Positions 26,801-42,815 of a DNA stretch of 44,343 bases are shown one piece after another (position 1 is the stretch's first letter; each line of letters begins with the position of its first letter). Under the pieces are notes generated by a model. It did no database searches, was not told the origin of the DNA, and saw only the letters and a program-made list of their open reading frames with translations. The DNA is from Chloroflexota bacterium. Lineage in GTDB: Bacteria > Chloroflexota > Anaerolineae > J102. The translations under genes and the position numbers were made by a program. The DNA lies in assembly GCA_013152585.1 (NCBI GenBank), contig JAADGC010000097.1, forward strand, positions 1-44,343, in the 5' to 3' direction.

Positions 26801-27170
26801 ACCCGGCGTCAATGATAATTCCCAGGTTGATCCCTATTCCATCCTCAGTTTCGCGGCTGGCGGCAGCAACCTCACCGCCGACTTCGGCTTTGTGCGTGCC
26901 AACCGGGACGACATCGGCGTCATTGGCAACCAGGTGTGGGTCGAATTCGACGGCGACGGCATCTTTGACCCTGCCAACGGCGATGTGGGCCGGGCTGGCG
27001 TCACGGTCGCATTGCTCGATGCGCTGGGACAGCCGATCCACAGCACTACATCCGGTGCTTCCGGCGATTACAGCTTTACCGGGCTGCCCGCCGGGGTTTA
27101 CAGCGTGCAGATAACCGATCTGTTTGGCGTCTTGAGTGCCTTTGGCTCCGCCATCTTCCCCGCCGGGTGA
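20838..27170 (+). CDS. Giant secreted repeat protein, N-terminal part (frameshifted)
   Basis: 2,110 residues up to a TGA in mid-domain. Hydrophobic signal segment at about 20-48. N-terminal domain (about 50-330; SYAYKIDVTALVS, WELVVLYADP, GIAQGLDLALG), clearly paralogous to that of the preceding protein. One DUF11-like domain (335-460), then five ~140-residue repeats (465-1187) each opening like SKEASAIADHGNG and containing TDAGVTP and THTWTI. Then eight SdrD B-like domains (from about 1188; IGDxVWxDxNxxGxxxxGE, LPAGxYxVxV, ADFGY), which bind calcium in family members. The eighth is cut by the stop. The next frame resumes the same domain, so this and 27167-30406 are almost certainly one gene. 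AGGAGATAG precedes the ATG. Likely a surface stalk or adhesin. Confidence 0.85.
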   Translation: MNQILSTVGSPVPFIQQNRRLLRLLTLASLSLVLALVLLYTAIITPVWAGDADKPLEATMYGTCQDTSGLGVLMAGTGLDGYGTVSGTVNINVPGTVVSATVYYNGSDDDSLGADTDVTFNSIPLSGTLAGGPALWDVGQWSYAYKIDVTALVSSGPGTYTLDGVEAALQSGFATFVNGWELVVLYADPTRKPYAVGIAQGLDLALGSNGPASGPGIDPVVFPFNPAAITRTADLISVAGGVTSSTNPTALYYEFGYGTAPFTSTDIYTTGTLLADNPFQATDGKYWDTYTATVDIPPDVTYLIVQAQSKDDLTPAALEWILQSLALPDACPEIDVRKVRTAPPDGIAGVGDTITFDVGVENIGNTELITVPLVDDFDPAYLDFSNSTPAAPDAQASGVLTWTDISGAGSMMPSDIITYTLSFTGTNPTVLATINTATAQATDFNLGQTPPVTDTDSVEIVADMVVRKKASAIADQGNGIYQVVYQIAVVNGSVISQTYDLTDTFGFDVDFTVVTTPTVTTDAGVTPDSTFTGAAPNTHLASGVGISAEATHTWTITVLVDASADASPATAIDACDPTAPTSATGLYNQTDMVSGGIPHNADACPSGDTSVVFSKEAGAIADHGSGLYSTKYAIVVHNTGLAATTYDLSDAFDFDLQFTVVTTPTVTTDAGVTPDPTFMGSAPNTHLASTVSIGPGATHTWTIEVLIDASTDPDPVAAFAACDPLHPTPGDGLFNEAELTVNGIPNTEDACPSGDVPVIIRKEGSAIAKLANGYYRVSYDIVVRNIGPLATVYDLSDSFGFDPSFNVVGSPTVTTDAGVTPNPGYTGYVPNDGLATAVGLPVGGVHTWTISVDVDIQGQSGRIFDCTVDNPVSGQGFYNDAFVTVNGIPVDEPACPANTLISKEASAIADHGNGLYSVVYEIKVQNTAAISTTYNLTDTFDFDGDFAIVGQPAVSTDAGVTPNPAFSGSAPNEELASGVTLLGNTTHTWTIKVLVDASVDPNPPAAIDACDPGNPTPGTGLFNQSELTVNGVPTTADACPSDGTKVVFRKTAGRIVQVGTDQYRVAYDIVIQNTGTVSTTYNLTDTFGFESVFSVVGQPVVTTNAGVTPNPAFTGSAPNEELASNVTILSTATHTWTIAVVVDTSSAADKVGVCDPNNPVPNTGLYNESELTVNGIPNTEDACPNADTGAIGDYLWYDSNEDGIQDITESGIANVTLELWLDNDGSGVINPITDTLVSTTATGADGGYIFKNLSSGDYLVDVTDTKGILAGYNLTSGPQSQPVPFAYSLAADEIVRDADFGYVLPTGPGTAVVGDTVWYDPNQNGVRDPGETGIPGVTLALKDFGTDGIPGNGDDNVITIDISDINGNYLIANVSPGNYYVDAVAGVPGGVSPSSGAPDPTAPFSVVAGDQYLDADIGYVLDTPSEIAGTVWNDTPNKNGILDEAGSPGFPSVSVDLLDSGGNIIATNTTDTNGDFDFPGLPAGTYQVQVSDTQNVLDDFVPTVIIGGTANGTNKAQPYTVVLPSNTINTTADFGYVFDGQTGYGGIIGNQVWYDVDGNGIFGSGDVGIEGVTVDLLDSLGQVITGTTTGASGDYVFTSRPPGSYQVQVTDAYNILAGTIPTIYPANQTADNSNKIQPYSISLPTDGINMTADFGYTRPAAIGDFVWYDANGNGIQNVGEPGIANVTLDLYTVGIDGLIGTGDDVFIDSTATDADGGYLFRYLPADDYYVDVTDLSGQLSTYTQITTNQAQTDPTGIIPLAVGRVFKDADFGYRQLPLVPGNAIVGDTVWFDADVDGLQQPGEPGIPGVTVNLMDVGPDGIAGTGDDVLVAITTTDETGNYLFDTVPPGTYVVDAISGVPGGLTASPAAPDPTLSFIVAANDQYLDADIGYYDTANVLGEIGDLVFEDVNLSSQFDVGDRALPGVSVDLIRDSNGNGAWDAGEPVIATDTTDETGAYLFTGVPADDYLVHISDTNSVLIDYTWGPLGTPGVNDNSQVDPYSILSFAAGGSNLTADFGFVRANRDDIGVIGNQVWVEFDGDGIFDPANGDVGRAGVTVALLDALGQPIHSTTSGASGDYSFTGLPAGVYSVQITDLFGVLSAFGSAIFPAG
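22230..24399 (+). repeat. Five tandem ~430-bp coding repeats
   Basis: Units begin near 22230, 22669, 23107, 23531 and 23969. Blocks such as CACGGTCACTACCGACGC recur almost unchanged between units, indicating recent or homogenised duplication. The DNA identity could also confuse short-read assembly. Confidence 0.75.
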
Positions 27171-27255
27171 GCGACAACAACAACAAGATCCAGCCGTACA
27201 GCATCAGCCTTCCCGCTTCTGCCGCCAATCTGGTTGCCGACTTTGGTTACCAGGC
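24400..27255 (+). repeat. Eight tandem SdrD B-like coding repeats
   Basis: Units start near 24409, 24772, 25117, 25477, 25816, 26188, 26533 and 26920, each encoding an (I/V)GD/GN-x-VW-x-D opening and ending in an A-D-F/I-G-(Y/F) strand. The last unit runs across the frame change at about 27165. Confidence 0.75.
27160..27180 (+). other. Frameshift junction inside the eighth SdrD-like repeat
   Basis: The upstream frame ends GSAIFPAG then TGA (27168-27170). The downstream frame reads VSDNNNKIQPYSISLP from GTG 27167. A sister repeat reads TIYPANQTADNSNKIQPYSI without a break. Adding one G to the GGG at 27165-27167 would restore a single frame. The GTGA overlap could allow re-initiation, but there is no ribosome binding site and no second signal peptide. 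Confidence 0.8.
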
Positions 27256-30200
27256 CGCCATCGATCTACAGATCAGCAAAGATGATGGCGGGGTCAGTGT
27301 ATCTCCGGGTGGCGTTGTCACCTACACATTGCTCTATACCAACACCGGAAACTGGACGACCACCGGCGTCTTCATTACCGACACCATACCCGCCAATGCC
27401 ACCTTTAATGCGGCTGCCAGTACTGCCGGTTGGCTCTGCAGCCCTGATAATACTGCCGGCAGCGTTTGCGGCTTCAACCTCGGTAACCTGCTGGTGGGGG
27501 CGACGGGCTCGGTGGACATCGCCTTTACAGTGGATAACCCCGTTCCCGCCGGCGTCAGCCAAATCGACAATACTGCCTTCCTTCAGGATGACGGCACGCG
27601 TGGCCCCGACAGCACTCCCTCCGATAACCAGGATTCTGATACCACCCCCATCGCTGCCGGTATCGATCTCAGCATCACCAAAGATGATGGCGGCGCCACC
27701 ACCCAGCCGGGCGCTGTAGTGGTATACATGCTCAACTACAACAATGGCGGCACGCAAGCCGCTACTGGCGTCACCATCACCGACACCGTACCGGCCCATA
27801 CCACCTTTAATGCCGCTGCCAGCACACCCGGCTGGGTCTGTGTGCCCAATGCCAACGCCGGCAGCGTGTGTACTTCCACCCTGGGTACAGTTGCTGCGGG
27901 CGTACCCGCCTCGGTCGTCTTTAGCGTCAGAGTCGACAGCTCCGTACCTGCCGGCGTCAACGAGATCAGTAACACCGCCTTCATTCAGGACGACGGCAGC
28001 AGCGGTCCCGATCCCACCCCCGGTAACAATCAGGATAGCGACAACACGCCTCTGAGTGCCGCGCCCGACATGCGCATCGTCAAAAGCGATGGCGGCGCCA
28101 TAACGGCCCCCGGTGGCGTCGTCGTCTATACACTGACATACACCAATGGCGGCAATCAGGGCGCAACCGGCGTGACCATAACAGACACGGTGCCCGCCCA
28201 CTCCACCTTCAGTCCTGGCGCCAGCACCACCGGCTGGAGCTGCACCCCTAACAACAATCCCGGCAGCCTGTGCACCTATACCGTGGGCGCAGTCTCCTCC
28301 GGATCCGGGGGGATTATTGTCTTCTCGGTCGTGGTTGATGACCCCGTGGCGGCCGGGGTAAACCAGATCGACAATACCGCCTTTGTGCAGGACGATGGCA
28401 GCAACGGCCCCGATCCCACCCCCGGCGACAACCATGACAGCGACAGCACACCCGTCAACGTCGCCCCCGATCTGGCCATCACCAAAGATGATGGCGGCGC
28501 CACCGGCACCCCCGGCTCTGTCGTGGCCTACGCCCTCATCTATCAGAACAAGGGCGATCAGGATGCCACGGGTGTGACCATCACCGACACCGTGCCCGCC
28601 CATACAACGTTCAATGCCGGTGCCAGTTCGGCCGGATGGGCATGTGTGCCAAACAACAACGCCGGCAGTGAGTGCACACTGACGATTGGCAATCTGGCGG
28701 TAGGCGTCAGTGCCTCGGCCGCTTTCGCTGTCACCGTCGATGATCCGTTGGTCGGAGTCGGCTTCATAGGCAACACGGCCTGGATCCAGGACGACGGCAG
28801 CAACGGGCCAGATCCCACGCCGGGCGATAATCAGGACACGGACGACACGCCCATTATCCTCGCTACCTCCACGCCAACTCCTATTGTCTCCCTCACACCC
28901 ACGCCGACTTCTACTTCCACACCTACCTCTACCCCCTCCCCTACCCCCACGCCGGGTTCGTGCCAGTCCATCGATCCCTTCGAGCCGAATAACACCTCCA
29001 TGCAGGCGAGTGTCTTGGTCCCGGATGGCAGCACACATCATCTCGATTTCGGGCCTGCCGATGGCGATCAGGACTGGTTCCAGTTCACCGCTGTTGCCGG
29101 CGCCACCTACACCATGACCACCTTCAACCTGGGGGCAGGCACCGACACCATCCTGTTCCTGTTCCAGCCACCCAACTTCAACGAAGGCGGCGCCATTGCT
29201 CTCAACGATGACTTTGGCGGCGGGTTGGGCAGCCAGATCGTATGGACAGCGCCGACGGCCGGAACCTACTACTTCATGATACGCGATTTTGCCAACGTGG
29301 GCGGATGCCACACCTATGATCTGCGCTTCGATCGTGACCACAAACACTACTGGCCGCTGATCATTCGCAATCCCGCCTACACCCCCACGCCCACACCGAC
29401 CCCCACACGCCTGCCTACCTACACACCGACTCGCACCCCCACGCCTTTCGATACACCCACTGTGACGCCTACCCCCAGCGGTCCCTTCATCCTGGAGGTT
29501 CCCGAGCTCTCACATCCCAAGGGTGTGGCGGTCGACAAACATCGTAACATCATTTATGTATCCAGTCGCGACAACAATTCTGTGTACGTAGTGAGCGGCA
29601 CGACGGATCTGGTGATCGACAAAATTCCGGTCTGTAACGAGCCCTTCGGACTGGACGTGAACACCGTCACGCACAAGTTGTATGTGGCCTGTTTCGCCGA
29701 CGGTGTGGTGGATGTGATCAACACCAACATCAACTGGGTGATCGGCACCATTCCGGTCGGGCCCGAACCGAGCTGGGTGGCCGTCAACGAAGTCACCAAC
29801 CGCATCTACGTGACCACCCACGGCAATAACGGCGTGGTGGAGATTCGCGGCGGTGATGACACGCGGCAGCGCATCGAAGGTGTCGGCGCCGGTGTGTTTG
29901 GCATCGCCGTAAACGAGAATCTCAACCGCATCTACGTCACAAGTCGTGACGAAGGCACAGTGAGTACCATCGACGGCCTCACCATGGGCCGCATCGACTC
30001 GCAACGAGTCTATCCGGGCGGTGAGCGGGATCATCCTTATGGTCTGGGCTTCAATCCCGCCAGCAACCGCCTGTACGTGACTTACACCGACAACGGCTTT
30101 CTCACCAAGGTCGGTGTCTATCAGACCACGTCCGGTGGTTTGATCCGCCTGACCACGCTCACGGTGCCCGATGGTGGTAATGATGCCCCAGGCGTGCTGG

Positions 30201-30406
30201 GTGTGAATTCCGTGAAGAACCATATCTTCGTGCCCAACTCGGGCTCCAATTCGCTCACAGTGATCAACGGCGCCAGCAATCACATTATCACCACCCTGAG
30301 TTTCGCTCCCGATTTGTTCGGAATAGACGTCAACCCCTGGACAAATCGGGTCTATGCCGGGTCGCGGGCAGTCAACCAGCTCTGGGTGATCCCCGACTTC
30401 TTCTAG
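27167..30406 (+). CDS. Giant secreted repeat protein, C-terminal part (frameshifted)
   Basis: 1,079 residues, no signal peptide, starting in mid-domain. It finishes the eighth SdrD-like repeat (to about residue 28), then has four DUF11 repeats of about 134 residues (31-563; IDLSITKDDGG, ATGVTITDTVPAHTTF, WVCVPN, GPDPTPG), a Thr-Pro linker, one PPC domain (from 602, DPFEPNN, DQDWFQF, DTILFLFQPP), the motif HYWPLIIRN (725-733), a second Thr-Pro linker, and a YVTN beta-propeller (785-1079). The PPC-linker-propeller tail matches that of the preceding surface protein, which supports joining this with 20838-27170 into one protein of about 3,190 residues. It may be a sequencing error, a phase-variable state or a real mutation. 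Confidence 0.83.
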   Translation: MSDNNNKIQPYSISLPASAANLVADFGYQAAIDLQISKDDGGVSVSPGGVVTYTLLYTNTGNWTTTGVFITDTIPANATFNAAASTAGWLCSPDNTAGSVCGFNLGNLLVGATGSVDIAFTVDNPVPAGVSQIDNTAFLQDDGTRGPDSTPSDNQDSDTTPIAAGIDLSITKDDGGATTQPGAVVVYMLNYNNGGTQAATGVTITDTVPAHTTFNAAASTPGWVCVPNANAGSVCTSTLGTVAAGVPASVVFSVRVDSSVPAGVNEISNTAFIQDDGSSGPDPTPGNNQDSDNTPLSAAPDMRIVKSDGGAITAPGGVVVYTLTYTNGGNQGATGVTITDTVPAHSTFSPGASTTGWSCTPNNNPGSLCTYTVGAVSSGSGGIIVFSVVVDDPVAAGVNQIDNTAFVQDDGSNGPDPTPGDNHDSDSTPVNVAPDLAITKDDGGATGTPGSVVAYALIYQNKGDQDATGVTITDTVPAHTTFNAGASSAGWACVPNNNAGSECTLTIGNLAVGVSASAAFAVTVDDPLVGVGFIGNTAWIQDDGSNGPDPTPGDNQDTDDTPIILATSTPTPIVSLTPTPTSTSTPTSTPSPTPTPGSCQSIDPFEPNNTSMQASVLVPDGSTHHLDFGPADGDQDWFQFTAVAGATYTMTTFNLGAGTDTILFLFQPPNFNEGGAIALNDDFGGGLGSQIVWTAPTAGTYYFMIRDFANVGGCHTYDLRFDRDHKHYWPLIIRNPAYTPTPTPTPTRLPTYTPTRTPTPFDTPTVTPTPSGPFILEVPELSHPKGVAVDKHRNIIYVSSRDNNSVYVVSGTTDLVIDKIPVCNEPFGLDVNTVTHKLYVACFADGVVDVINTNINWVIGTIPVGPEPSWVAVNEVTNRIYVTTHGNNGVVEIRGGDDTRQRIEGVGAGVFGIAVNENLNRIYVTSRDEGTVSTIDGLTMGRIDSQRVYPGGERDHPYGLGFNPASNRLYVTYTDNGFLTKVGVYQTTSGGLIRLTTLTVPDGGNDAPGVLGVNSVKNHIFVPNSGSNSLTVINGASNHIITTLSFAPDLFGIDVNPWTNRVYAGSRAVNQLWVIPDFF
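27258..28855 (+). repeat. Four tandem ~400-bp DUF11 coding repeats
   Basis: Units begin near 27258, 27660, 28065 and 28466. Each encodes (I/L)xITKDDGG at its start and GPDPTPGDNxDSD at its end. Confidence 0.75.
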
Positions 30407-32472: not shown

Positions 32473-32516
32473 TACACATATCTGTGCGCAGGCACGAAGG
32501 CGGTGCAACTCGAAGT

Positions 32517-33263
32517 ATGGTTCCGACGACCATCGAGCGGCCCAATTATCGATTGGATAAACTACAATGGAACATGGTGCAGGTGGCGCATTCTGTGCCT
32601 CTGTTTCGGGGCCTTTCGGAACAAGAATGGGGCCAGGTAACCCCTTTGCTCAATGGCCACTGCTATCCCAAGGATTCCTATATCTTCTTCCAGGGGGATC
32701 CGCCTACGGCGCTCTACATCATGTGGATGGGTCGGGTAAAACTGGTGCGCCATACCGGCCATGGTCGGGACGTGGTGATGGAAGTGTTGGGGCCAGGGCA
32801 GTTGATTGGTGAAATGGCCATCTTTGACGGTCGCCCCTACTCCATGACCGCCGTCACCTTGGAAGATGTGGCGGTTGTGTCCATTGCCCGCTCCGATTTC
32901 TTCTCTTTACTCGAACGCTATCCTCCCATCAGCATGGGGGTTATTTCCGAACTCAGTCGGCGCCTGCGGGTGACCAACGAACTCGTGCGTAGTCTGGCGG
33001 TGGATCGGGTGGAACAGCGTATTGCCCGCACATTGTTGCGATTGGCGGATCTGGCCGGACGCAGCTACAGCACACATCCCGGCGCCGTCTTAATCGACAT
33101 GGCTTTGACCCGACAGGACATTGCCGAGATGACAGGCACCACGGTCGAGACTGCCATTCGGGTGATGAGTCGTTTTCGTAAAAGCGGCCTTGTCGCCAGC
33201 GTGCGGGGCCGGGTTGTGATCAAAGAGCCTGAGCAATTGCGGGAAGTCGCTACCAGGGGTTGA
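32517..33263 (+). CDS. Crp/Fnr family transcriptional regulator
   Basis: About 248 residues from ATG 32517. N-terminal cyclic-nucleotide-binding-like beta-barrel (VPLFRGLSEQEW, DSYIFFQGDPPTALYIM, GQLIGEMAIFDGRPYSMTAV), a long dimer helix, and a C-terminal winged helix with LTRQDIAEMTGTTVETAIRVMSRF. No N-terminal Fnr-type cysteine cluster is visible, so an iron-sulfur oxygen sensor is unlikely; the effector is unknown. Start choice is uncertain: GTG 32484 and ATG 32574 are also in frame and none has a good ribosome binding site. It converges on the molybdo-hydroxylase operon. Confidence 0.9.
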   Translation: MVPTTIERPNYRLDKLQWNMVQVAHSVPLFRGLSEQEWGQVTPLLNGHCYPKDSYIFFQGDPPTALYIMWMGRVKLVRHTGHGRDVVMEVLGPGQLIGEMAIFDGRPYSMTAVTLEDVAVVSIARSDFFSLLERYPPISMGVISELSRRLRVTNELVRSLAVDRVEQRIARTLLRLADLAGRSYSTHPGAVLIDMALTRQDIAEMTGTTVETAIRVMSRFRKSGLVASVRGRVVIKEPEQLREVATRG

Positions 33264-33342: not shown

Positions 33343-35688
33343 TCAGGCGTCCTTATTTTTACTTTGCAACAACTCGAAGAGCCGGTTGGGACTGAGGGGA
33401 ATCTCCAGCACTTCCAGGTCGTACTCTGCCAGGGCATCTTCGACAGCCTGGGCGAAGAGGGGGCCCACGGGAATGGCGCCCGCTTCACCGGTGCCCTTGG
33501 TGCCCAGGGGGTTCAGCGGCGAAGGGGTCGTCTCATGCCCGATATCCAGCGACGGCACCTCCATCGAGGTGGGCAGCAAATAGTCCATGAACGAGGCTGT
33601 GAGAAGCTGGCCGTTGTCGTCGTAGACGATCTTCTCATAAAAAGCATTGCCGATGCCTTGGGCGATACCGCCCTGCACCTGACCATCGACGATCAGCGGA
33701 TTCAGCACGGTGCCGCAATCATGCACGGCCACGTATTTGAGTATCTTGATCATGGCCGTTTCCGGGTCCACTTCCAGGATCATGGCATGAACGCCATTGG
33801 CCGTGACCCCGCGTTCGGGGCCGAAATAATCGGTGGCCTCCAGGCCGGGCTCGGTACCCGGGCGCACGGCCCCCCGCAGGGGGTTGGCCTTGGCGGCCAG
33901 GTCTTTGAGGGCGATGGCGAATTCGGGGTTTTTCTTATCCCGCACAACGCCGTCCACCAGCTCCAGGTCCTCTTCCGGCGCTTCCAGTTCCCGGCTGGCC
34001 ATCGCCAGGATTTTCCTGCGCACGGCAGCAGCAGCGGCGTTGATGGCGTTGCCGGCCACCACGGCCCCCCGGCTGGCGAACGTGCCGGTGCCCCAATGGA
34101 ACTGATCGGTGTCGCCTGTTACCAGATGAACGTCACGCGGGCTCACGCCCAACTGATCGGCTACCACCTGAGCAAAGGAGGTAAAGTGTCCCTGCCCCTG
34201 GGTGCCGATGCCCGTAGAAACGTTGACTTTGCCCGTGCTTTCCACCTGCACCCGGGCGCCTTCATACGGCCCGATACCGGTGCCTTCCACATACGTGACC
34301 ACACCGATGCCCACATGGCGACCCTCGGCACGCAAGCGGGGTTGTTCCTCACTGATGAACTGCTCGTAGCCGATCATCTCCAGGGCTTTATCCAACGCCG
34401 GCTCGTAATTACCACTATCGTAGACCAGGGGTACAAAATCCTGGTAGATAAGCTCGTTGTTGTAGGGGAACTTGTCGGGGGGGATGAAGTTGCGGCGCCG
34501 GATCTCGGCGCGGTCGATACCCAGTTGCCTGGCGGCAATATCGAGCATACGCTCCATCACGAAGACACCGTGCTGCCGCCCTGCCCCCCGATAGGGGGTG
34601 ACAAGCGTCTTGTTGGTAAAGACGACCTTGAATTCAGAGGCATAGTTGGGCACATCGTAACAGCCCAGGAGGGTGCATTGGCTGTTGATGGGCACCGTCA
34701 GGCCGTAGGGATCGTAAGCACCGGTATCATGGATGAACTCATCCTTGAAGCCGAGAACGCGGCCCTCTTTGGTGAGGGCAATCTCGGCCCAGTGAATCTG
34801 GTCACGCTCGTGCGTGGTAGCAAAAAAGTTCTCCCGGCGATCCTCGATCCATTTGATCGGCCGCTGCAACTGCATGGAAGCCCAGGGTAACAGCACTTCT
34901 TCGGGATAAAACATCATGATTTTAGGCCCGAAGCCGCCGCCGATAAAGGGCGCAATCACCCGCACCTGCGACTCGGATAGGCCCAGCATGGCCGCCATGC
35001 CGTTGCGGATGACCACCGGCGCCTGCGTAGTGTCCCACATAGTCAGACGTTGCGTCTTGGCATCCCAGGTGGCGACGATGCCCCGGTTCTCCATGGCCGC
35101 GGCAATGCCATGATCGTAGTAAAGGCGGCGTTTGATAACCACATCGGCCTGAGCCCGGGCGCTTTCGTAGTCGCCCTTTTGCTGGAAGATATAGGCCGCC
35201 AGGTTGGAATCCAGGTCTTCGTGAATGAGAATGGCGTCGGGCGCCAGCGCTTTTTCCAGATCTACCACTGCCGGCAGGGCTTCGATATCCACAAAAACCT
35301 GCTCGACGGCATCTTCGGCGATGTAGCGGCTTTCGGCGACGATCATGACGATGGCTTCGCCCACGTGGCGCACCTTGTCTTTGGCCAGCGGTACCTGCGT
35401 GCGGGCATTGAAGATGGCGCCTTTCACCGGCGGGGGAGAAACCAGGGGCGGGCCGGGCCGCCAGTAGGCGCCCAGGTCGGCGGCCGTGTACACGGCTACC
35501 ACGCCCGGCATTTCTCGGGCATAGCTGGCATCGATGCTGCGAATGCGGCCATGGGCATAGTCGCTGCGTACAAAAGCAACATGCAACATGCCCGGCAGAT
35601 GCACATCATCGGTAAAGAGGGCCTGGCCTGTCAACAGCGCCGGGTCTTCGTTGCGCTTGATCCGTTGGCCAATATAGCGTTTACTCAT
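33343..35688 (-). CDS. Xanthine dehydrogenase/CoxL-type molybdopterin subunit
   Basis: 781 residues, usual size. Large subunit of a Mo-hydroxylase that binds Mo-molybdopterin cytosine dinucleotide and hydroxylates its substrate with water. Features: IGQRIKRNEDPALLTGQALF at the N-terminus, FIGGGFGPK, and the catalytic Glu at about residue 735 in GTKGTGEAG. The active-site loop is PYRGAGR (365-371), not AYxCSFR of form I CO dehydrogenase, so the Cys that carries copper is absent and CO oxidation cannot be assumed. Substrate could be an N-heterocycle or aldehyde. It overlaps the [2Fe-2S] subunit by 4 bases and is last in the operon. Confidence 0.92.
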   Translation of the reverse strand: MSKRYIGQRIKRNEDPALLTGQALFTDDVHLPGMLHVAFVRSDYAHGRIRSIDASYAREMPGVVAVYTAADLGAYWRPGPPLVSPPPVKGAIFNARTQVPLAKDKVRHVGEAIVMIVAESRYIAEDAVEQVFVDIEALPAVVDLEKALAPDAILIHEDLDSNLAAYIFQQKGDYESARAQADVVIKRRLYYDHGIAAAMENRGIVATWDAKTQRLTMWDTTQAPVVIRNGMAAMLGLSESQVRVIAPFIGGGFGPKIMMFYPEEVLLPWASMQLQRPIKWIEDRRENFFATTHERDQIHWAEIALTKEGRVLGFKDEFIHDTGAYDPYGLTVPINSQCTLLGCYDVPNYASEFKVVFTNKTLVTPYRGAGRQHGVFVMERMLDIAARQLGIDRAEIRRRNFIPPDKFPYNNELIYQDFVPLVYDSGNYEPALDKALEMIGYEQFISEEQPRLRAEGRHVGIGVVTYVEGTGIGPYEGARVQVESTGKVNVSTGIGTQGQGHFTSFAQVVADQLGVSPRDVHLVTGDTDQFHWGTGTFASRGAVVAGNAINAAAAAVRRKILAMASRELEAPEEDLELVDGVVRDKKNPEFAIALKDLAAKANPLRGAVRPGTEPGLEATDYFGPERGVTANGVHAMILEVDPETAMIKILKYVAVHDCGTVLNPLIVDGQVQGGIAQGIGNAFYEKIVYDDNGQLLTASFMDYLLPTSMEVPSLDIGHETTPSPLNPLGTKGTGEAGAIPVGPLFAQAVEDALAEYDLEVLEIPLSPNRLFELLQSKNKDA

Positions 35689-36161
35689 GAGGAGCTCTCC
35701 TTCATTTTAGCTGCTGCCAGTTTGACCGCATCCACAATGTGCTCGTATCCGGTGCAACGACAAAGGTTGCCGGAGATGGCCTCCCGGATTTCCTCATCGC
35801 TGGGATCGGGGTTCTGCGCCAGGAAAGGCTTGAGCGTCATCAGAAATCCCGGCGTACAAAAGCCGCATTGCAGGCCGTGGGCCTCCCAGAAGGCTTCCTG
35901 GAGAGCATCCAGGTGTTGGGGATCAGGACTAAGGCCTTCGACTGTCACGATTTCGTGTGCATCCGCCTGCACCGCAAACATCAAGCAGGAGCGCACCGCG
36001 GCGCCGTCAAAAAGGATGGTGCAGGCGCCACAAACGCCATGCTCACAGCCTACGTGGGTGCCGGTGAGCCCCAACTCGTGGCGGATGAAATCGCTCAGGA
36101 GCAGGCGAGGTTCCACGCTGCGCTCGTACAGAACGCCATTGACTGTGACGGATATTTTCAT
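35685..36161 (-). CDS. [2Fe-2S] subunit of Mo-hydroxylase (CoxS-type)
   Basis: 158 residues. Carries two iron-sulfur clusters: a plant-type one in CEHGVCGACTILFDG, and a second in CGFCTPGF plus CRCTGY. It passes electrons from the Mo site to FAD. ATG 36161 is chosen because AAGGTG lies 9 bases upstream; a GTG at 36173 is the alternative. It starts 13 bases after the FAD-subunit stop and its stop overlaps the large-subunit start (ATGA). Confidence 0.93.
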   Translation of the reverse strand: MKISVTVNGVLYERSVEPRLLLSDFIRHELGLTGTHVGCEHGVCGACTILFDGAAVRSCLMFAVQADAHEIVTVEGLSPDPQHLDALQEAFWEAHGLQCGFCTPGFLMTLKPFLAQNPDPSDEEIREAISGNLCRCTGYEHIVDAVKLAAAKMKESSS

Positions 36162-36174
36162 TATTTGGTTCACC

Positions 36175-37059
36175 TTACACCTCCTCGCCGGCGGCGCGGG
36201 CGCAGGCTGCGGTCAGAGCTCGTTTGGCCAGCACATCCACCAGATGCCTACGGTATGCGGATGTGGCATGAACGTCGCTGTGGGGGTCGACATCATCGCT
36301 GGCTGCAATCGCAGCCGCGGCCTCGATCACCTCGGCCGTGGGACGCTGTCCCTGCAGCACCGCGGCGGCGGCGGTGGCCAGCACAGGGCCCTCGCCTACG
36401 CCGCAAAACGCCAGGCGCACATCATCACAGGCGCCATCGGCATCGAGTGTGAGCAGGGCCTCGACGGCCACCAAGGCAAAATCGCCATGGCGCCGCGATA
36501 GTTCTTGCATCGACCATCCGCTGCGCGCCGGCATGGCTGGCAACCGGACTGCCGTGACAATCTCATCGGGCTCGAGGGCAGTGCTAAACAGACCGATGAA
36601 GAAGTCGTCAGCGTCGATCCAGCGCTGCCCGCGCCTGCTTTGGGCCAGAACCTGGCCGCGCACGGCGCGCAGAAAGGCAGGGAGTTCGGCGGCGGGATCG
36701 GCATGGGCGATGGAACCGCCGAACGTGCCGCGGTTGCGGATCTGAGGATGAGCGATGTGTGGCATGGTGGCATGGAGCAGGGGCGCCGTGCGGGCGATGA
36801 GCTCGCTCTGCTCTACCTGCACATGCCGGGTCATAGCCCCCACCAGGGCACCGCCCTCGGCCGTCGGTTGGATGATGCTGAGCTCGGGGATCTTGTTGAG
36901 ATCGATGAGAACGGCCGGGGCAGCCAGGCGGAAATTCATGGTGGCGATCAGGCTCTGGCCGCCGGCCAGTACCTTGGCGCCGTAACCATGCTCCGCCATG
37001 AGCTGCAGAGCTTCGTCAAGCGTCGTGGGAGCGTGGTATGCAAAGGGTGGGGGCTTCAT
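36175..37059 (-). CDS. FAD-binding subunit of Mo-hydroxylase (CoxM-type)
   Basis: 294 residues. Contains the FAD-binding AGGQSLIATMNFRLA and the pyrophosphate-binding GTFGGSIAHADPAAELPA, then the typical C-terminal domain with DDVRLAFCGVGEGP. ATG 37059 (MKPPPFAYHAP) is chosen since AAGGAT lies 7 bases upstream; a longer in-frame start at 37191 would run into the cyclase gene. It begins just 4 bases after the cyclase gene stop. Confidence 0.92.
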   Translation of the reverse strand: MKPPPFAYHAPTTLDEALQLMAEHGYGAKVLAGGQSLIATMNFRLAAPAVLIDLNKIPELSIIQPTAEGGALVGAMTRHVQVEQSELIARTAPLLHATMPHIAHPQIRNRGTFGGSIAHADPAAELPAFLRAVRGQVLAQSRRGQRWIDADDFFIGLFSTALEPDEIVTAVRLPAMPARSGWSMQELSRRHGDFALVAVEALLTLDADGACDDVRLAFCGVGEGPVLATAAAAVLQGQRPTAEVIEAAAAIAASDDVDPHSDVHATSAYRRHLVDVLAKRALTAACARAAGEEV

Positions 37060-37063
37060 ACGT

Positions 37064-38734
37064 TTATCCTTCTTTGATGGCGATAAATCGTCCCCACATG
37101 GAAGCGGTCTCCATTCCCTTGGGCAGGTAGACGCCGAGGTAGTAGCGGCCACTGGGTGTGCGTGCCATATCATTGCCCAGGTTCTCGGCATGGACGATGC
37201 CTTTGGGGAAGAGATTCAGGTGGGTATCCTGGTAGAATTTGTCCAGTGCGAACATCTCATCCCAGTCTTTGCCGAAACGAGCCTTGAGCTTGGCGTTGGC
37301 CTCGGCGAAGGTCTTGGGATGCCAGACACGCTGGATGGTGTTCATGGGATGGTCCTGGCTGACGGCATCGACGCCCAACCACTTGATTTTCTTGCTGATG
37401 ACCCAGGCGGAGAAGTCGGGTGAGGGGCCGGGATGACGCAGCATGTAGCGGAATTCGTCGGAGTCGGGGCTGTTCCAGCCGTATTTGTGGAAGCCGGTCT
37501 TGATGATGAGGATGTCGCCCTCGTGCACATCCACGACGCTCTCGATCATCTCGGGCGAGTACACATCCAGGTCGGACACCATGTCGGAGATGTCGGCGAT
37601 GGCGCCGGGGCCGATCCAGTGCTGCAGCGGCACTTGGCCAATGGTGCGGCCATTGGGCCAGAAGTGTTTCTCGCCGTCCATGTGAGTAGCAAGATGGAAA
37701 CTGGCTTCGCAGAGGGCGGTGTTGCGGCCCAGGCCATAGCCCAGCCCGCCTACACGCTTGACATAATGAACAACAAGCGGTTCGTAATTGGCCCATTGCG
37801 GGGTTTGCACGCTGAAGGGCAGGGTGAAGTCCAGAATTTCGGCATCATCGAGCATCTGGAAGAAGGTTTCTTCGTCCATGCCGGCAGGGGGGCGATAGGC
37901 GACGGGGCGCATCCACGAGCTGGCGACTTCCATGTAGGGCAGGGGCAGCAACATGAACCAGGCGCGTTTGCCGTTGAGTTCGTCGATTTGTCCCACCAGA
38001 GATTCGGCGAAGAGAAGATGGGATTTAGGTACGACCTGATGGGTGAGATGGTAGTATTCCTGCGGTGGGAACATTTCATCCCAGGATTTGCCGTGTTCGG
38101 CCTTGAGCTTGGCTTCGGCCTTTTCGAACTCGCCGGCGTGCATGGTGCGGATGTTGGTGTTCATCGGGTGTTCGGCGATGCCGCAATCTACACCGACGAT
38201 CTTCAGCTCCATGTCCAGCGCCCATTTGTAAAACGACATCGAAGGGCCCGGGTGACGGACGAGGAAGCCGAATTCTTTGCTCTCGACACCGCCCTGCGCT
38301 TCGGGATTGACGACATCGGGTCGATCCCAGGAGTAGCGATGGTAGCCCGTGTTGATGATGAGGATGTCGCCTTTGTGTACATCGGCGCGGCTGGTGATCA
38401 TTTCTGGCGTGTACACGCTGTAATCCGAGACCAGATCGGAGATGTCGACGACGATCCCGCGACCTGTGACAGCGTCGATCGGTACATCGGCCAAGGCCCG
38501 GCCGCCCGAGTTATAAGCGCGTTCGCCCACCAGGTGGGTGCCGGTGGTATTGCTCCAGCGGATGAACTGGCCATTGGCGCCCAGGCCGCCGCCATAAGCG
38601 CCGGTAACGCGCTTGAAGAAGGTGATTTCCAGCGCTTTGTCGCCGGGCCAGGGAGGTGTGAAGATGCTCAGATCTTGTGACAGATCAAAGACTTCGGCAT
38701 TTGCCAGTGTGGAGATAATTGTTTCGCGGTTCAT
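37064..38734 (-). CDS. Tandem-domain cyclase-family metal-dependent hydrolase
   Basis: 556 residues, about twice the usual 210-270. Two cyclase (kynurenine formamidase/isatin hydrolase-type) domains, at about 14-275 and 297-540; both have GDILII(N/K)TG(Y/F)HxYxW and a VGVD/LGVD strand with HPMNT. The HxGTHxDxPxH metal motif is intact in domain 2 (H347, H351, D353, H357) but in domain 1 reads TTGTHLVGERA, keeping only H67. Domain 1 thus probably does not bind metal in the standard way. Family members hydrolyse amides or open rings with Mn or Zn. AGGAG precedes ATG 38734. It lies between DUF1116 and coxM with tight spacing. Confidence 0.88.
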   Translation of the reverse strand: MNRETIISTLANAEVFDLSQDLSIFTPPWPGDKALEITFFKRVTGAYGGGLGANGQFIRWSNTTGTHLVGERAYNSGGRALADVPIDAVTGRGIVVDISDLVSDYSVYTPEMITSRADVHKGDILIINTGYHRYSWDRPDVVNPEAQGGVESKEFGFLVRHPGPSMSFYKWALDMELKIVGVDCGIAEHPMNTNIRTMHAGEFEKAEAKLKAEHGKSWDEMFPPQEYYHLTHQVVPKSHLLFAESLVGQIDELNGKRAWFMLLPLPYMEVASSWMRPVAYRPPAGMDEETFFQMLDDAEILDFTLPFSVQTPQWANYEPLVVHYVKRVGGLGYGLGRNTALCEASFHLATHMDGEKHFWPNGRTIGQVPLQHWIGPGAIADISDMVSDLDVYSPEMIESVVDVHEGDILIIKTGFHKYGWNSPDSDEFRYMLRHPGPSPDFSAWVISKKIKWLGVDAVSQDHPMNTIQRVWHPKTFAEANAKLKARFGKDWDEMFALDKFYQDTHLNLFPKGIVHAENLGNDMARTPSGRYYLGVYLPKGMETASMWGRFIAIKEG

Positions 38735-38772: not shown

Positions 38773-40014
38773 CTAAAAGCCGTATTTTTCGGCATAAGCG
38801 ACGAGGGCTTTTTCAAACAGGGCCATCGGCGGGCGCACAAGGCCGGCGCCGATCTGACCCACGCCGGCATCTTTGTGGGCGATGCCTGTGTTCACCCGCG
38901 GTTCGATGCCGGTCTCGACCACTTTGCGGATGTCGAGGCCGGTCGGTGTGCCGCGGAAGCCCAGCGCCGGAATGGTGAAGTATTTGTGCTCGGTAAAGGT
39001 GATCTCGTACATCTCCAGCGTGGTGTCGATGGCATCTTGGGGCGTGCCGCTGACAAAAGTGACGATGGCCGGAGCGGCCGCCATGGCAAAGCCGCCAATA
39101 CCGGCGGTTTCGGTGATGGTGCTGTCGCCGATGTCGGGGCTACCATCTTCGGCGGTGAAGCCGGGGAAGTAAAGTCCCCTGGGCTGCGGGCAGGGGGCAG
39201 TGAACCATTGATCGCCGAGGCCGCTGACGCGGATGCCAATATCGGTGCCGTTGCGAGCCATGGCCGTGACGATGGTGCTGCCTTCGATGTTGCGCCCGGC
39301 ATCCGCCATGGCTTTGCACGCCGCCATCACCGGATTGAGGACACTGAGGGCATTGTCGCCGATATCTTTGAGAATGGCGGCGGCCACATCGGCATTGGGG
39401 GCTGCCTTGGCCACATGGGGAGCCAGGGCTTTGAGATAGAGGATGGAGCCGGCTTTGTTGCGGTTGTGTCCCTCGTCTCCCATGTGCAGGGCCTCAGCCA
39501 ATAGGGCTTTGATATCGATGCCGCCACCGGCTTCGATGGCGTGGCGCAGGACGGGTGCCATCACATCATTCAGCCAGTGCAGGCGCTTGAGCACGCTGGC
39601 ATCATAGGCGCCGTAGCGCAATACCTTGCCGTAGCCTTCATTCAGGTTGGAATAGGAGAAATTGCCATGAGTCTTGTTTTCCAGGATGTACATCTCCATC
39701 GACGGTGATGTAACGCCCGCCATCGGGCCCACTGCCTGGTGATCATGGCAGGGCTCCAGATCGATTGCCCCCGACTTGACCAGCGCTTCTGCCTCCGCGG
39801 CATTTTGGGCTTTGCCCTCGAAGAGGAGCGCACCAATCAGGGCGCCTCTCATCGGTCCCGAAGCTCTGTCCCAGGTGATGGGGGGGCCGGCGTGCAGTAA
39901 CAGGTTGTGGCGCATGCCGGGAACAACGTCGATGGCTTTGCCCAGGCCCACCAGCACGGGACGAGCTTCCATCATACGTTCCACTGTTTCTGTGTTTGCT
40001 CGATCAATGTCCAT
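38773..40014 (-). CDS. DUF1116 protein (YlbE/AllG-like), FdrA partner
   Basis: 413 residues. Recognised by its family-wide sequence (MRHNLLLHAGPPI, GPMAGVTSPSMEMYI, HMGDEGHNRNKAG, MARNGTDIGIRVSGLG, GIAHKDAGVGQIGAG). In E. coli the homologue sits beside fdrA in the allantoin cluster, and the FdrA/YlbE/YlbF set has been reported as an anaerobic oxamate carbamoyltransferase. That role is inference here. No DUF2877 (YlbF-like) gene is in the window. GAGGTA lies before ATG 40014. There is a 251-base gap to fdrA containing a hairpin. Confidence 0.87.
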   Translation of the reverse strand: MDIDRANTETVERMMEARPVLVGLGKAIDVVPGMRHNLLLHAGPPITWDRASGPMRGALIGALLFEGKAQNAAEAEALVKSGAIDLEPCHDHQAVGPMAGVTSPSMEMYILENKTHGNFSYSNLNEGYGKVLRYGAYDASVLKRLHWLNDVMAPVLRHAIEAGGGIDIKALLAEALHMGDEGHNRNKAGSILYLKALAPHVAKAAPNADVAAAILKDIGDNALSVLNPVMAACKAMADAGRNIEGSTIVTAMARNGTDIGIRVSGLGDQWFTAPCPQPRGLYFPGFTAEDGSPDIGDSTITETAGIGGFAMAAAPAIVTFVSGTPQDAIDTTLEMYEITFTEHKYFTIPALGFRGTPTGLDIRKVVETGIEPRVNTGIAHKDAGVGQIGAGLVRPPMALFEKALVAYAEKYGF

Positions 40015-40265: not shown

Positions 40266-41975
40266 TCAGCGTTCCCTCATTCGAGCCAGAATGGAGGCCA
40301 GCCGTTCATTACCACCGGCTGAGGGCCGCCACTCGACATGCACGACTTGCGCCTCCTGGGCATGCAAGCTTTCGGCAAATGATTCCAGGCCGACGTTGAT
40401 GGCCGCAAGGGGTGGCTGCACGGTGTCTAAAGAGACCGGCTTCCCGCTGACGATGCCATTCAGGTTGCGCAGTCGTTCGCCTACATAGCGGACACCGCTC
40501 TCATTGCCGAGGGCGACGTGGGCACCGGCTTGCTGCAACTGCTCCATCTGGGCGCTCAAATTCTGGGGGTCTTCATCTGTGCCTACGACGACTGCCACCA
40601 CTTCCAGCGTGCGTCCAGCAGCCTGGGCGGTGGCTCGGGCTGCGGCGATGGCCGGGCCCAGCTCGCTGGCAGGATCGGGATGAGCGCCATAGCCCAGGAC
40701 CACGTCCAGCAGGATGATGGCCACCTGGGGATCGGCCGCCTCTTGTTGCAGGCGGCGGATACGCAGGTCGTTATCCATCATGGGGTGTAGGCGGCCCACG
40801 GTAAACTCGTCTTCGCCCAGATCGATAATCGTGTGTTCCTGGCTGACGAGGGCATTCTGCAGACGGTAGGCCGGCTCCAGCGGCGTGTTAGAGTAGACGG
40901 CCGGCAGGTAGTCTTGCAGAAGTAATAGGGCTTCGTAGGCCAGGGTGCCACCCGAGAAGAGGCCCCGCAAGTAGCGTTGTCCGGCGGCAAAGGGGAGCGC
41001 CGGTGTTTCGGCGGCGATTGGCGGGGCATTGCGGCTCAACGACACGGCCAGCTCGGCTGCGTCATCCAGCGTGTGGGCAAAGTGGATGGTGCCATCCTCG
41101 GCCTGGGGCGCTTGGTAGCCGATAAAATCGACCACAACCGGTTTGCCCGTCGCCCGTGCTGCCCGCAGAAGTCGCCGGGCGACCCGTTCGGCAGGGGGTT
41201 TGGAGATCAGAACGATCACCCGGGTCTCGATATCGCGGCTGAGTATGTCTAATCCCTGCAAAGCTGTCTGTGCCCCCACAGCTTCTGAGAGATCACGGCC
41301 CCCGGTGCCCAGGCCCAGGGTAATGCCACTGCCCAGTTGATGGATACGGGATGTCACCTGTTGCAATCCGGTGCCCGAGGCTGCGACGACGCCGATGGGG
41401 CCTTGCCGCACGCGATTGGCGAAGCCCAGGCCGACGCCGCTGACAAGGGCTGTGCCGCAATCGGGGCCCATCACCAGCAAGCCTTTGTCGGCAGCAATGC
41501 GCTTGAGATCAATTTCGTCTTCGAGCGAAACGTTATCGCTGTAAAGAAATATATGTTTGCCCAACGACAATCCCTGCTTCGCTACGCCCGCCGCGTATTG
41601 GCCTGGCACCGAAACGAGCATCCAGTTGGCCTGTGGCATCATGCGGGCGGCCGCATCGATGGATTTGGGACGGTATGTTTGATTGGCGGCCTGCGTGTGG
41701 CGGCGTTTGAGGAGCTCATCCACCTGGGCGATGGCGGCACCAGCGATGCTTTCATCTTCGGCGCTGACAACGATGATCAGATCGTCAGCTTTGGCCGCGT
41801 TGGCGGCATCCGTGAGGAGACCGCTCTGGGCAAGGATTTCTTTGTTGGCTGTAGTGCCCATCACTACACCGGCGTCCTGGACACCGGGGAGTTCTACCAG
41901 CGCCCGTTGTAACTGCATGAGCACAACGGAATCGTAGTAAGCGCTCCGTCGAATTTCGGCGTTGATAGCTGCCAT
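40266..41975 (-). CDS. fdrA: FdrA family protein (acyl-CoA synthetase-like)
   Basis: 569 residues, near the ~555 of E. coli FdrA. Succinyl-CoA-synthetase-like fold: CoA-binding region with LVMGPDCGTALVSG, IGVVAASGTGLQQVTS, the phosphohistidine-loop-like GLGTGGRDLSEAVG, and a C-terminal ligase domain with ALLLLQDYLPAVYSNTPLE, HTIIDLGEDEFTVGRLHPMMD and VVLGYGAHPDP. With DUF1116 it is thought to move a carbamoyl or acyl group, forming carbamoyl phosphate. Start ATG 41975 has GAG nearby. A good promoter lies at 42031-42060, so it seems to be the first gene of the catabolic operon. Confidence 0.9.
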   Translation of the reverse strand: MAAINAEIRRSAYYDSVVLMQLQRALVELPGVQDAGVVMGTTANKEILAQSGLLTDAANAAKADDLIIVVSAEDESIAGAAIAQVDELLKRRHTQAANQTYRPKSIDAAARMMPQANWMLVSVPGQYAAGVAKQGLSLGKHIFLYSDNVSLEDEIDLKRIAADKGLLVMGPDCGTALVSGVGLGFANRVRQGPIGVVAASGTGLQQVTSRIHQLGSGITLGLGTGGRDLSEAVGAQTALQGLDILSRDIETRVIVLISKPPAERVARRLLRAARATGKPVVVDFIGYQAPQAEDGTIHFAHTLDDAAELAVSLSRNAPPIAAETPALPFAAGQRYLRGLFSGGTLAYEALLLLQDYLPAVYSNTPLEPAYRLQNALVSQEHTIIDLGEDEFTVGRLHPMMDNDLRIRRLQQEAADPQVAIILLDVVLGYGAHPDPASELGPAIAAARATAQAAGRTLEVVAVVVGTDEDPQNLSAQMEQLQQAGAHVALGNESGVRYVGERLRNLNGIVSGKPVSLDTVQPPLAAINVGLESFAESLHAQEAQVVHVEWRPSAGGNERLASILARMRER

Positions 41976-42060: not shown

Positions 42061-42102
42061 AACGACGAAATTGATTTTCGCCAGCCCCCCGTTTCATGGT
42101 TG

Positions 42103-42129
42103 GGCATGGCTTCATGGGACGGCCATGCC
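42103..42129 (-). terminator. 8-bp hairpin after the CoxG-like gene
   Basis: GGCATGGC (42103-42110), 11-base loop, GCCATGCC (42122-42129), perfect, starting 2 bases after the CoxG-like stop. No T-run. With the fdrA promoter just beyond, it suggests separate transcription of the two units. Confidence 0.45.
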
Positions 42130-42131
42130 TG

Positions 42132-42815
42132 CTACGAGGAATGACAGAAGAGCTTTCGCAAAAGCCACAGCACCAGGACAACGCTCAGCGTGGCCAGGCC
42201 GCCGACGACATAAGGACGTTGCTCCGCGGGCACGTATTCGGCAAAGATGTCCTGGGCCAAACGCAGGGTGACTTCCAGCTCGCTGGGCGGGTTGATCTCG
42301 GGCGTGGGTGCCGGCTGGGGCGCCGCCGCTCCCGGTGCCTCTGGCGTTGGCTGGGGAGGCGCTGCGGGCTGCTGACGGGCCAGTATGATGCGGTCCAGGC
42401 TTTCCAGTCCCTGGCGCAAAATAGATTTGGCCGAGGTCTCCACCAGGCGCTGTCCCACACTGGCAATACGGCCACCAACGTCCCCGGTTCCCTGATAGCT
42501 GAGCACCGTCTTGGCGTCTTCAACTTCAGTCAGCACCACATCTCCCCCCCCGCGTACAAATCCGGCCGGCCCCCGACCTTCGACTTCCATGCGAAAACTT
42601 TCCTGGTCTTTGAGATCGATCAAGCTTACGACTCCCTTAAATCGGCCCTGCACCGGTCCCACGCGTACGTTCAGCACGCCCTCAAAGCTATTGTCGCCGA
42701 CTTTGTCGAGTCGTTCGGTGCCAGGCAGCATTTTTGCCAGCACTTCCGGGTCCATGAGCGCGTCCCAGACCTCTGTGCGGGGTGCTGCAAAGGTGTAACT
42801 TCCACTTAATTCCAC
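42132..42815 (-). CDS. coxG: CoxG-like SRPBCC protein with C-terminal membrane anchor
   Basis: 227 residues. The N-terminal SRPBCC/START-like fold has the CoxG pattern: SGSYTFAAPRTEVWDALMDP, LAKMLPGTERL, and TVLSYQGTGDVGGRIASVGQRLV. A Pro/Ala linker (about 150-175) follows, then a C-terminal helix VVGGLATLSVVLVLWLLRKLF that would anchor it. CoxG proteins tether CO dehydrogenase-type enzymes to the membrane and are reported to carry quinone for electron transfer. Here it would link the Cox-type enzyme to respiration. GTG start with AGGAG 8 bases upstream. Confidence 0.88.
   Translation of the reverse strand: MELSGSYTFAAPRTEVWDALMDPEVLAKMLPGTERLDKVGDNSFEGVLNVRVGPVQGRFKGVVSLIDLKDQESFRMEVEGRGPAGFVRGGGDVVLTEVEDAKTVLSYQGTGDVGGRIASVGQRLVETSAKSILRQGLESLDRIILARQQPAAPPQPTPEAPGAAAPQPAPTPEINPPSELEVTLRLAQDIFAEYVPAEQRPYVVGGLATLSVVLVLWLLRKLFCHSS

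What the first reader, a model, noticed from the sequence alone, without database searches (positions are those of the whole stretch)
37064..38734. Duplicated cyclase with one degenerate metal site
Domain 2 keeps H347, H351, D353 and H357 of HxGTHxDxPxH; domain 1 keeps only H67, with Thr, Val and Ala at the other ligand positions. Both domains are otherwise well conserved, so domain 1 is likely kept for structure, substrate gating or a different chemistry.
Basis: seen in the sequence. Interest (0 to 1): 0.55.

Follow-up and report, generated by a model that had tools for sequence, protein, structure and literature searches.

The report
Two-domain hydrolase sharing one active site
A bacterial ring-opening enzyme seems to be two copies of an older paired enzyme fused end to end, where one half kept the metal-binding site and the other kept the loop that completes it, so the fused protein probably works as one enzyme with a single active site.

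Summary
ORF 37064-38734(-), 556 aa, has two Pfam Cyclase domains. Domain 2 (D2) has H347/H351/D353/H357; domain 1 (D1) has T63/H67/V69/A73. The D1 loss is fixed: in 81 proteins (window plus 80 from a genome scan) position 63 is T/N/S, 69 is V/M/T, 73 is A/S, never a ligand; 3 further doubles agree. D1 and D2 each form one clade, so duplication and loss are old. "Only H67" is incomplete: D1 also keeps H232 and E244 in 81 of 81.

Published relatives are dimers in which a hairpin of one subunit lines the other's pocket. Single-domain relatives have both metal site and hairpin. In the double protein these are split: D1 keeps the hairpin (A53, G55, Q56, 81 of 81), D2 keeps the ligands but has R337 in place of A (81 of 81). 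I read it as a fused pseudo-dimer with one composite active site. Neighbours are AllF, AllG and a Mo-hydroxylase; an intact single-domain relative sits in the same operon elsewhere. Substrate unproven; a cyclic ureide is my guess. Known kind, new variant.

The parts
37064..38734 (-). Double-domain cyclase-family amidohydrolase, 556 aa
   Evidence: AlphaFold2 model mean pLDDT 91.6, pTM 0.92
37886..38734 (-). Domain 1 (residues 1-283), metal site degenerate, hairpin intact
38516..38551 (-). D1 degenerate motif, residues 62-73 (N-T-T-G-T-H-L-V-G-E-R-A)
38567..38590 (-). D1 hairpin motif, residues 49-56 (GGLGANGQ), predicted to line D2's pocket
   Evidence: invariant at 49, 50 and 52-56 in 81 rows; partner role inferred from isatin hydrolase and KynB
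37064..37885 (-). Domain 2 (residues 284-556 and stop), metal site intact
37664..37696 (-). D2 metal motif, residues 347-357 (HLATHMDGEKH)
37724..37726 (-). D2 R337, which replaces the hairpin Ala found in D1 and in the 29 single-domain relatives compared
   Evidence: 81 of 81
38773..40014 (-). AllG homologue (PF06545, oxamate carbamoyltransferase subunit)
   Evidence: 308.5 bits, cut-off 27
40266..41975 (-). AllF/FdrA homologue
   Evidence: NF004760 575.4 bits, cut-off 433
42132..42815 (-). CoxG-like protein
   Evidence: PF06240 86.4 bits, cut-off 22.2
36175..37191 (-). FAD subunit of a molybdenum hydroxylase (true start probably near 37059, most homologues align from about residue 45)
35685..36173 (-). 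2Fe-2S subunit of the molybdenum hydroxylase
33343..35688 (-). Molybdopterin subunit of the molybdenum hydroxylase
   Evidence: below the cut-offs of CO dehydrogenase models

Best explanation
The protein is a fused pseudo-homodimer with one working active site. The ancestor was a single-domain, probably homodimeric cyclase-family amidohydrolase in which each site is composite: metal ligands from one subunit, a hairpin from the other. After duplication and fusion the two halves degenerated reciprocally. D2 keeps the metal ligands and the catalytic His; D1 keeps the hairpin (A53, G55, Q56) that lines D2's pocket and has lost its own ligands. D2's hairpin, which would line the dead D1 pocket, was free to change and carries an invariant Arg (R337), which may fill the emptied site opposite E244. 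The working site most likely uses a Zn or Mn ion held by H347/H351/D353 (perhaps a second ion with H505/E517) and H357 as base to hydrolyse a ring C-N bond of a hydroxylated N-heterocycle; the ureido product would go to the AllF/AllG carbamoyltransferase encoded next door. Shown: sequence, fixation, reciprocal pattern, operon, predicted fold. Inferred: D1-D2 hairpin exchange, single active site, metal, substrate.
For: D1 loss fixed in 81 of 81 plus 3 more. D1 and D2 each monophyletic, 100/100 and 97/100, then 100/100 both in a second tree. Both halves have the isatin hydrolase/KynB fold, Z about 20-22, aligned 206-234 residues, and the model is confident as a whole, pTM 0.92. KynB and isatin hydrolase are dimers in which residues 10 and 8 before the first ligand His line the partner's pocket (passages, section). 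Those two columns: D1 A53 and G55 81 of 81 and the same letters as at least 95% of the 29 single-domain relatives compared; D2 R337 81 of 81 and a mixed 339 (G37/N30/T10/S3/E1). Of 90 sites invariant in those singles, 9 are kept only by D1 and 9 only by D2; the D2-only set holds the ligand/catalytic columns H63/D69/H73 (D1 numbers), the D1-only set holds F40, A53, Q56, N62 of the hairpin segment. Four basal single-domain relatives, 45-52% identical to each half, have both intact; two of them sit with AllG and FAD/FeS/Mo genes, and one of these also with AllF and AllH, as the double does.
Against: No coordinates were available, so the hairpin exchange between D1 and D2 was not seen; part of D2's hairpin is modelled with low confidence. 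The hairpin enrichment is small in number: Fisher p 0.08 (4 of 9 against 0 of 9) or 0.056 (5 of 22 against 0 of 17), with segment bounds 40-62 chosen after the fact; only the two columns -10 and -8 were named beforehand. D1 keeps H67, H232 and E244 in 81 of 81, stricter than a dead pocket needs. Twelve distant singles were left out of the site count; they have V, not A, at the -10 column. The second tree warns of long branches between D1 and D2.
Confidence: 0.66

Rival explanations
1. D1 still holds a metal in an unusual site made of H67, H232 and E244 (two His and one Glu) and does different chemistry or a structural metal job.
For: All three residues are invariant in 81 of 81 doubles and are equivalents of KynB His54, His161 and Glu173.
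Against: T/N/S63, V69 and A73 remove the first His, the bridging Asp and the catalytic His in every double. In KynB His54 and His161 bind different ions bridged by the lost Asp. D2's R337 falls on the column that lines this pocket.
Confidence: 0.12
2. D1's pocket has become a binding site for substrate, product or an effector that controls D2.
For: Invariant E244, H232, H161, H189 and R337, and a D1-only insertion with Q147, G148, E151 invariant in 81 of 81.
Against: Most of these residues are also invariant in single-domain relatives (37 of 90 singles-invariant sites are kept by both halves), so general fold constraint explains them. No direct sign of a ligand.
Confidence: 0.14
3. D1 is only a folding or stability scaffold and contributes nothing to D2's active site.
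For: Loss of ligands with good overall conservation (mean column entropy 0.72 bits in D1, 0.68 in D2).
Against: The columns that line the partner's pocket in known relatives are the ones D1 keeps and D2 changes.
Confidence: 0.08

Closest known systems
Isatin hydrolase (Labrenzia aggregata IHA/IHB, PDB 5nna, 4j0n, 4m8d)
   Same: Fold of both halves (Z 21.6-21.9), HxG[T/A]HxD ligand motif in D2, hairpin-exchange dimer as the model for D1-D2 (passages of PMC6117287).
   Different: Two domains in one chain, one of them without ligands; no hairpin tryptophans; Glu517 where isatin hydrolases have Gln or Ala; 14-19% identity.
Bacterial kynurenine formamidase KynB (PDB 4co9, 4cob, 4cog)
   Same: Fold (Z 20.3-20.9); D2 has equivalents of His50, His54, Asp56, His60, His161 and Glu173 (section of PMC4243253 read).
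   Different: KynB is a homodimer of about 210-residue chains with two working sites; TIGR03035 scores 57.7 against a cut-off of 223; different gene neighbours.
Single-domain relatives in other bacteria (L149-L152)
   Same: 45-52% identical to each half; in two of four, linked to AllG and FAD/FeS/Mo genes.
   Different: One domain of 270-282 aa with metal motif and hairpin both intact.
Oxamic transcarbamylase AllFGH of Escherichia coli (PMC11326118, abstract read)
   Same: AllF and AllG homologues directly upstream; AllH on another contig of the same genome.
   Different: In E. coli allFGHK form one operon next to allantoin genes; here AllF/AllG are joined to a Mo-hydroxylase and the double cyclase.
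Trypanosoma AdoMetDC with its dead paralogue prozyme (PMC5201418, start of abstract seen in the listing)
   Same: A catalytically dead paralogue is kept as partner of the active one.
   Different: There two separate proteins with allosteric activation; here one fused chain and a proposed shared site.

Membership tests
Pfam PF04199 Cyclase | Score over the curated cut-off | tested here: met
   170.4 bits against 23.1, two stretches; each half alone over the cut-off
Pfam PF04199 Cyclase | HxGTHxD metal motif | tested here: inconclusive
   Met in D2 (H347, H351, D353), not met in D1
Kynurenine formamidase (TIGR03035) | Equivalog model score over the cut-off | tested here: not met
   57.7 bits against 223.05
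Isatin hydrolase | GLQC/GLAS motif and hairpin tryptophans (PMC6117287) | tested here: not met
   D2 has HAENL at that place, and the hairpin columns are A53/G55 and R337/T339
Isatin hydrolase / KynB fold | Swivelling fold with exchanged hairpin | tested here: inconclusive
   Fold matched for each half; the exchange itself could not be seen without coordinates
Oxamic transcarbamylase AllFGH | AllF and AllG subunits present | tested here: met
   NF004760 575.4/433; PF06545 308.5/27
Oxamic transcarbamylase AllFGH | AllH in the same operon | tested here: not met
   AllH is on another contig of this genome; present somewhere in 15 of 20 genomes with a double
Aerobic CO dehydrogenase | Large-subunit model over the cut-off | tested here: not met
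   NF040766 927.1/950 and TIGR02416 588/991; loop reads TPYRGAGR, the CO dehydrogenase loop AYxCSFR being recalled
Metal-dependent amidohydrolase activity | Metal-dependent hydrolysis of a cyclic amide or ureide | not testable with these tools
   needs an assay

The most novel reading that the evidence does not exclude
The double protein is a one-site pseudo-dimer that arose by reciprocal loss of the two halves of a shared active site, and it is the ring-opening enzyme of an undescribed oxidative nucleobase pathway: a Mo-hydroxylase oxidises a pyrimidine (for example uracil to barbiturate), the double cyclase opens the ring to a ureido acid, and AllF/AllG(/AllH) pass the carbamoyl group to phosphate for ATP, with amidase and CoA-transferase genes feeding the remaining acid to CoA. 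R337 of D2 replaces the lost metal in D1.
Probability: 0.18. Interest if true: 0.72.

Novelty: new variant of a known kind. Interest (0 to 1): 0.5.

Why it matters
Many enzymes that work as pairs share active sites across the interface. Here a single-domain relative with everything intact survives in the same kind of operon, so the split of one site between two fused halves can be read residue by residue and tested with few mutants. The operon also links an unassigned cyclase-family hydrolase, a Mo-hydroxylase and the recently identified oxamic transcarbamylase subunits in Anaerolineae and relatives, which makes an unassigned nitrogen-heterocycle pathway testable.

Tried and rejected
CO dehydrogenase operon: the Mo subunit falls below the CO dehydrogenase models' cut-offs, and the neighbours are AllF/AllG, so rejected. 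Kynurenine formamidase or isatin hydrolase as the function: model score and signature motifs not met. Recent or strain-specific decay of D1: rejected by the fixed loss and the two clades. D2 as the degenerate half, or doubles with both sites intact: none seen among 81 plus 3.

Searches that gave nothing: papers with at least two of barbiturase, ureidomalonate, cyclase family protein, DUF1116, uracil dehydrogenase, cyclic ureide: 0; four of Chloroflexi, cyclase, xanthine dehydrogenase, FdrA, oxamate: 0; three of malonamate, barbiturate, oxalurate, ureidomalonic acid, uracil catabolism, transcarbamylase: 0; 8F9X, 8HMO or 'cyclase family protein' (20 of 50 listed) and PF04199 with duplication terms (6 of 6 listed) showed no paper whose title or abstract start describes a double-domain cyclase. 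The library holds open-licence papers only. The fold search gives ranges, not coordinates, so metal-site geometry could not be measured; the second structure job was not used. The + strand ORF 42096-42809 was taken first for a gene; its weak matches run antisense and the minus strand there encodes CoxG.

Rows left out: in the site count, 12 of the 15 'B' singles (L131, L132, L139-L148) were omitted as a distant subgroup; the first tree used 37 of 81 doubles and the second 26. Of 358 relatives found by the scan only the best 80 were kept by the tool, so distant doubles are under-sampled; L063 and L066 are cut by contig ends, and L040 lacks its first residues.

Full report
1. Observation. The minus-strand ORF 37064-38734 encodes 556 aa with two PF04199 Cyclase domains. 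D2 has H347, H351, D353 and H357. D1 has T63, H67, V69 and A73 in the aligned columns. The halves are 39.9% identical over 281 columns.

2. Is the loss fixed? A whole-protein search of 61 genomes gave 11 full-length double proteins, the window's own and ten others 70-91% identical to it. A scan of the GTDB contig collection found 358 relatives and kept 80, all double-domain. Over the 81 (window plus 80), position 63 is T49/N27/S5, 67 is H81, 69 is V79/M1/T1, 73 is A80/S1, while H347, H351, D353 and H357 are 81 of 81. One scan pattern was the D2 motif, so D2's intactness there is partly by construction. Three more full-length doubles from motif-free searches (L014, L015/L178, L137) agree; the script left the ligand positions open. 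Hosts are mostly Anaerolineae and other Chloroflexota, with records titled Acidobacteria, Verrucomicrobia, Candidatus Puniceispirillum and the complete genome of Candidatus Uabimicrobium.

3. What D1 keeps. D1 keeps H67, H161, H189, H199, H232, E244 and E269 in 81 of 81. H232 and E244 have the 12-residue spacing of KynB His161 and Glu173, which bind the second zinc with the bridging Asp56; the link runs through the alignment to 1r61 and the remark on the I(L/I)E motif in PMC6117287. So 'only H67' is too strong. The first ligand His, the bridging Asp and the catalytic His are nevertheless lost in D1.

4. History. With 37 doubles and 22 singles, D1 (100/100) and D2 (97/100) are each one clade. 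With 26 doubles, 22 Chloroflexota singles, 4 'A' singles and 15 'B' singles, both are 100/100, and the A singles and two B singles lie with the doubles beside the fork, weakly supported (76/95) and with a long-branch warning. The A singles (L149-L152, 270-282 aa) are 45-52% identical to each half and have SNHVGTH[MI]DGEIHF (L149: SHHVGTHMDGEIHF) and GANGQ. One duplication and fusion followed by one loss in the D1 stem is the simplest reading.

5. The split site. In isatin hydrolase two residues of one monomer (Trp59, Trp61; ligand His69) line the other monomer's pocket, called a hallmark of the fold (PMC6117287, passages). In KynB the partner residues are Val40 and Val42 (ligand His50) (PMC4243253, section; dimer text). 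Both are 10 and 8 residues before the first ligand. By gapless alignment those columns are A53 and G55 in D1 and R337 and T339 in D2. D1: A 81, G 81. D2: R 81, then G37/N30/T10/S3/E1. Of 90 sites invariant (95% or more) in 29 singles, 37 are kept by both halves, 9 by D1 only (P30, F40, A53, Q56, N62, Y105, D137, G185, P264) and 9 by D2 only (D1 numbers Y32, H63, D69, H73, R156, W179, W198, F236, H242), the other 35 being mixed, partly lost or lost in both. D1 keeps the hairpin part and D2 the metal part. The enrichment of hairpin sites is weak by count (Fisher p 0.08 and 0.056), and the segment limits were drawn afterwards; the two partner columns were named before the count. The 12 omitted distant singles have GVNAQ, so V in place of A.

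6. Structure. AlphaFold2 with the 81-row alignment gave mean pLDDT 91.6 and pTM 0.92; residues 329-331 of D2's hairpin are below 50. Foldseek's first 34 matches are all of this fold; VIA-align gives isatin hydrolase Z 21.6-21.9 over 229-234 residues with rmsd 2.6-2.8, matched to D1 in some rows and D2 in others, and KynB Z 20.3-20.9.

7. Surroundings. On the minus strand, in order: CoxG-like (42815-42132), AllF/FdrA, AllG, the double cyclase, then FAD, 2Fe-2S and Mo subunits. Among the 80 loci, AllG lies within 2.5 kb upstream on the same strand in 63 of the 72 with at least 1.5 kb upstream (53 within 400 bases); AllF upstream in 46 of 58 with 4.5 kb; a Mo-hydroxylase subunit downstream in 50 of 59 with 2.5 kb; the Mo subunit in 35 of 42 with 7.5 kb. 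Nine of the 72 lack AllG there, among them the Uabimicrobium and Acidobacteria loci. Recurrent further neighbours are a CoA-transferase III (18 loci), a carbon-nitrogen hydrolase (15), an NmrA-like protein (36), CoxG (28), a xanthine/uracil permease (15) and a Bmp-type ABC transporter (12 loci for the binding protein). The window's genome has AllH next to a CoA-transferase III, an amidase and a Bmp ABC transporter on contig C245 and a carbamate kinase on C148. AllH occurs in 15 of 20 genomes with a double. In G409 (L152) a single-domain intact relative lies in AllH-AllF-AllG-cyclase-radical SAM-FAD-FeS-Mo order: the same niche filled by an undivided enzyme. Of the other three A singles, L151 also has AllG, FAD, FeS and Mo matches, L149 a FAD match at its side, and L150 none of these.

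8. Function. By family and context I infer hydrolysis of a cyclic amide or ureide made by the Mo-hydroxylase, followed by carbamoyl transfer as in oxamic transcarbamylase (PMC11326118, abstract). Nucleobase permeases support a pyrimidine or purine origin. Uracil, barbiturate, ureidomalonate, malonamate is a coherent sequence with the amidase and CoA-transferase, but it is my proposal; paper searches found nothing on it.

9. Verdict. A real, old and fixed feature. It is a pseudoenzyme domain fused to its active partner, a known kind, here with an unusually clear division of one composite site between two halves and an extant undivided relative.

Noticed in passing
36175-37191 (-): The listed ORF of the FAD subunit overlaps the cyclase by 128 bases; most homologues align from about residue 45 (Met, about 37059), so the start is probably there.
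   Followed up: partly
42096-42815: The + strand ORF 42096-42809 has no family; the minus strand (42132-42815) encodes a CoxG-like protein that belongs to the operon.
   Followed up: yes
L117 (own genome, contig C245): AllH lies between a CoA-transferase III and an amidase, divergent from a Bmp-type ABC transporter; AllF and AllG are in the window instead.
   Followed up: partly
window 38282-38308 (-), residues 143-151 of the cyclase: Insertion present only in D1, with Q147, G148, E151 invariant in 81 of 81; absent in D2 and singles. Role unknown.
   Followed up: no
L152:7176-8612 (-): A radical SAM protein with a B12-binding domain sits between the single-domain cyclase and the FAD subunit.
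   Followed up: no
L055, L059, L071, L072, L080, L100, L103: A second, single-domain cyclase with an intact site lies in the same locus as the double one in 7 of 80 loci.
   Followed up: partly
20838-27170 and 27167-30406 (+): Two large, probably surface or secreted repeat proteins (SdrD_B-like and DUF11 domains).
   Followed up: no
32484-33263 (+): A Crp/Fnr-type regulator lies just beyond the 3' end of the operon.
   Followed up: no
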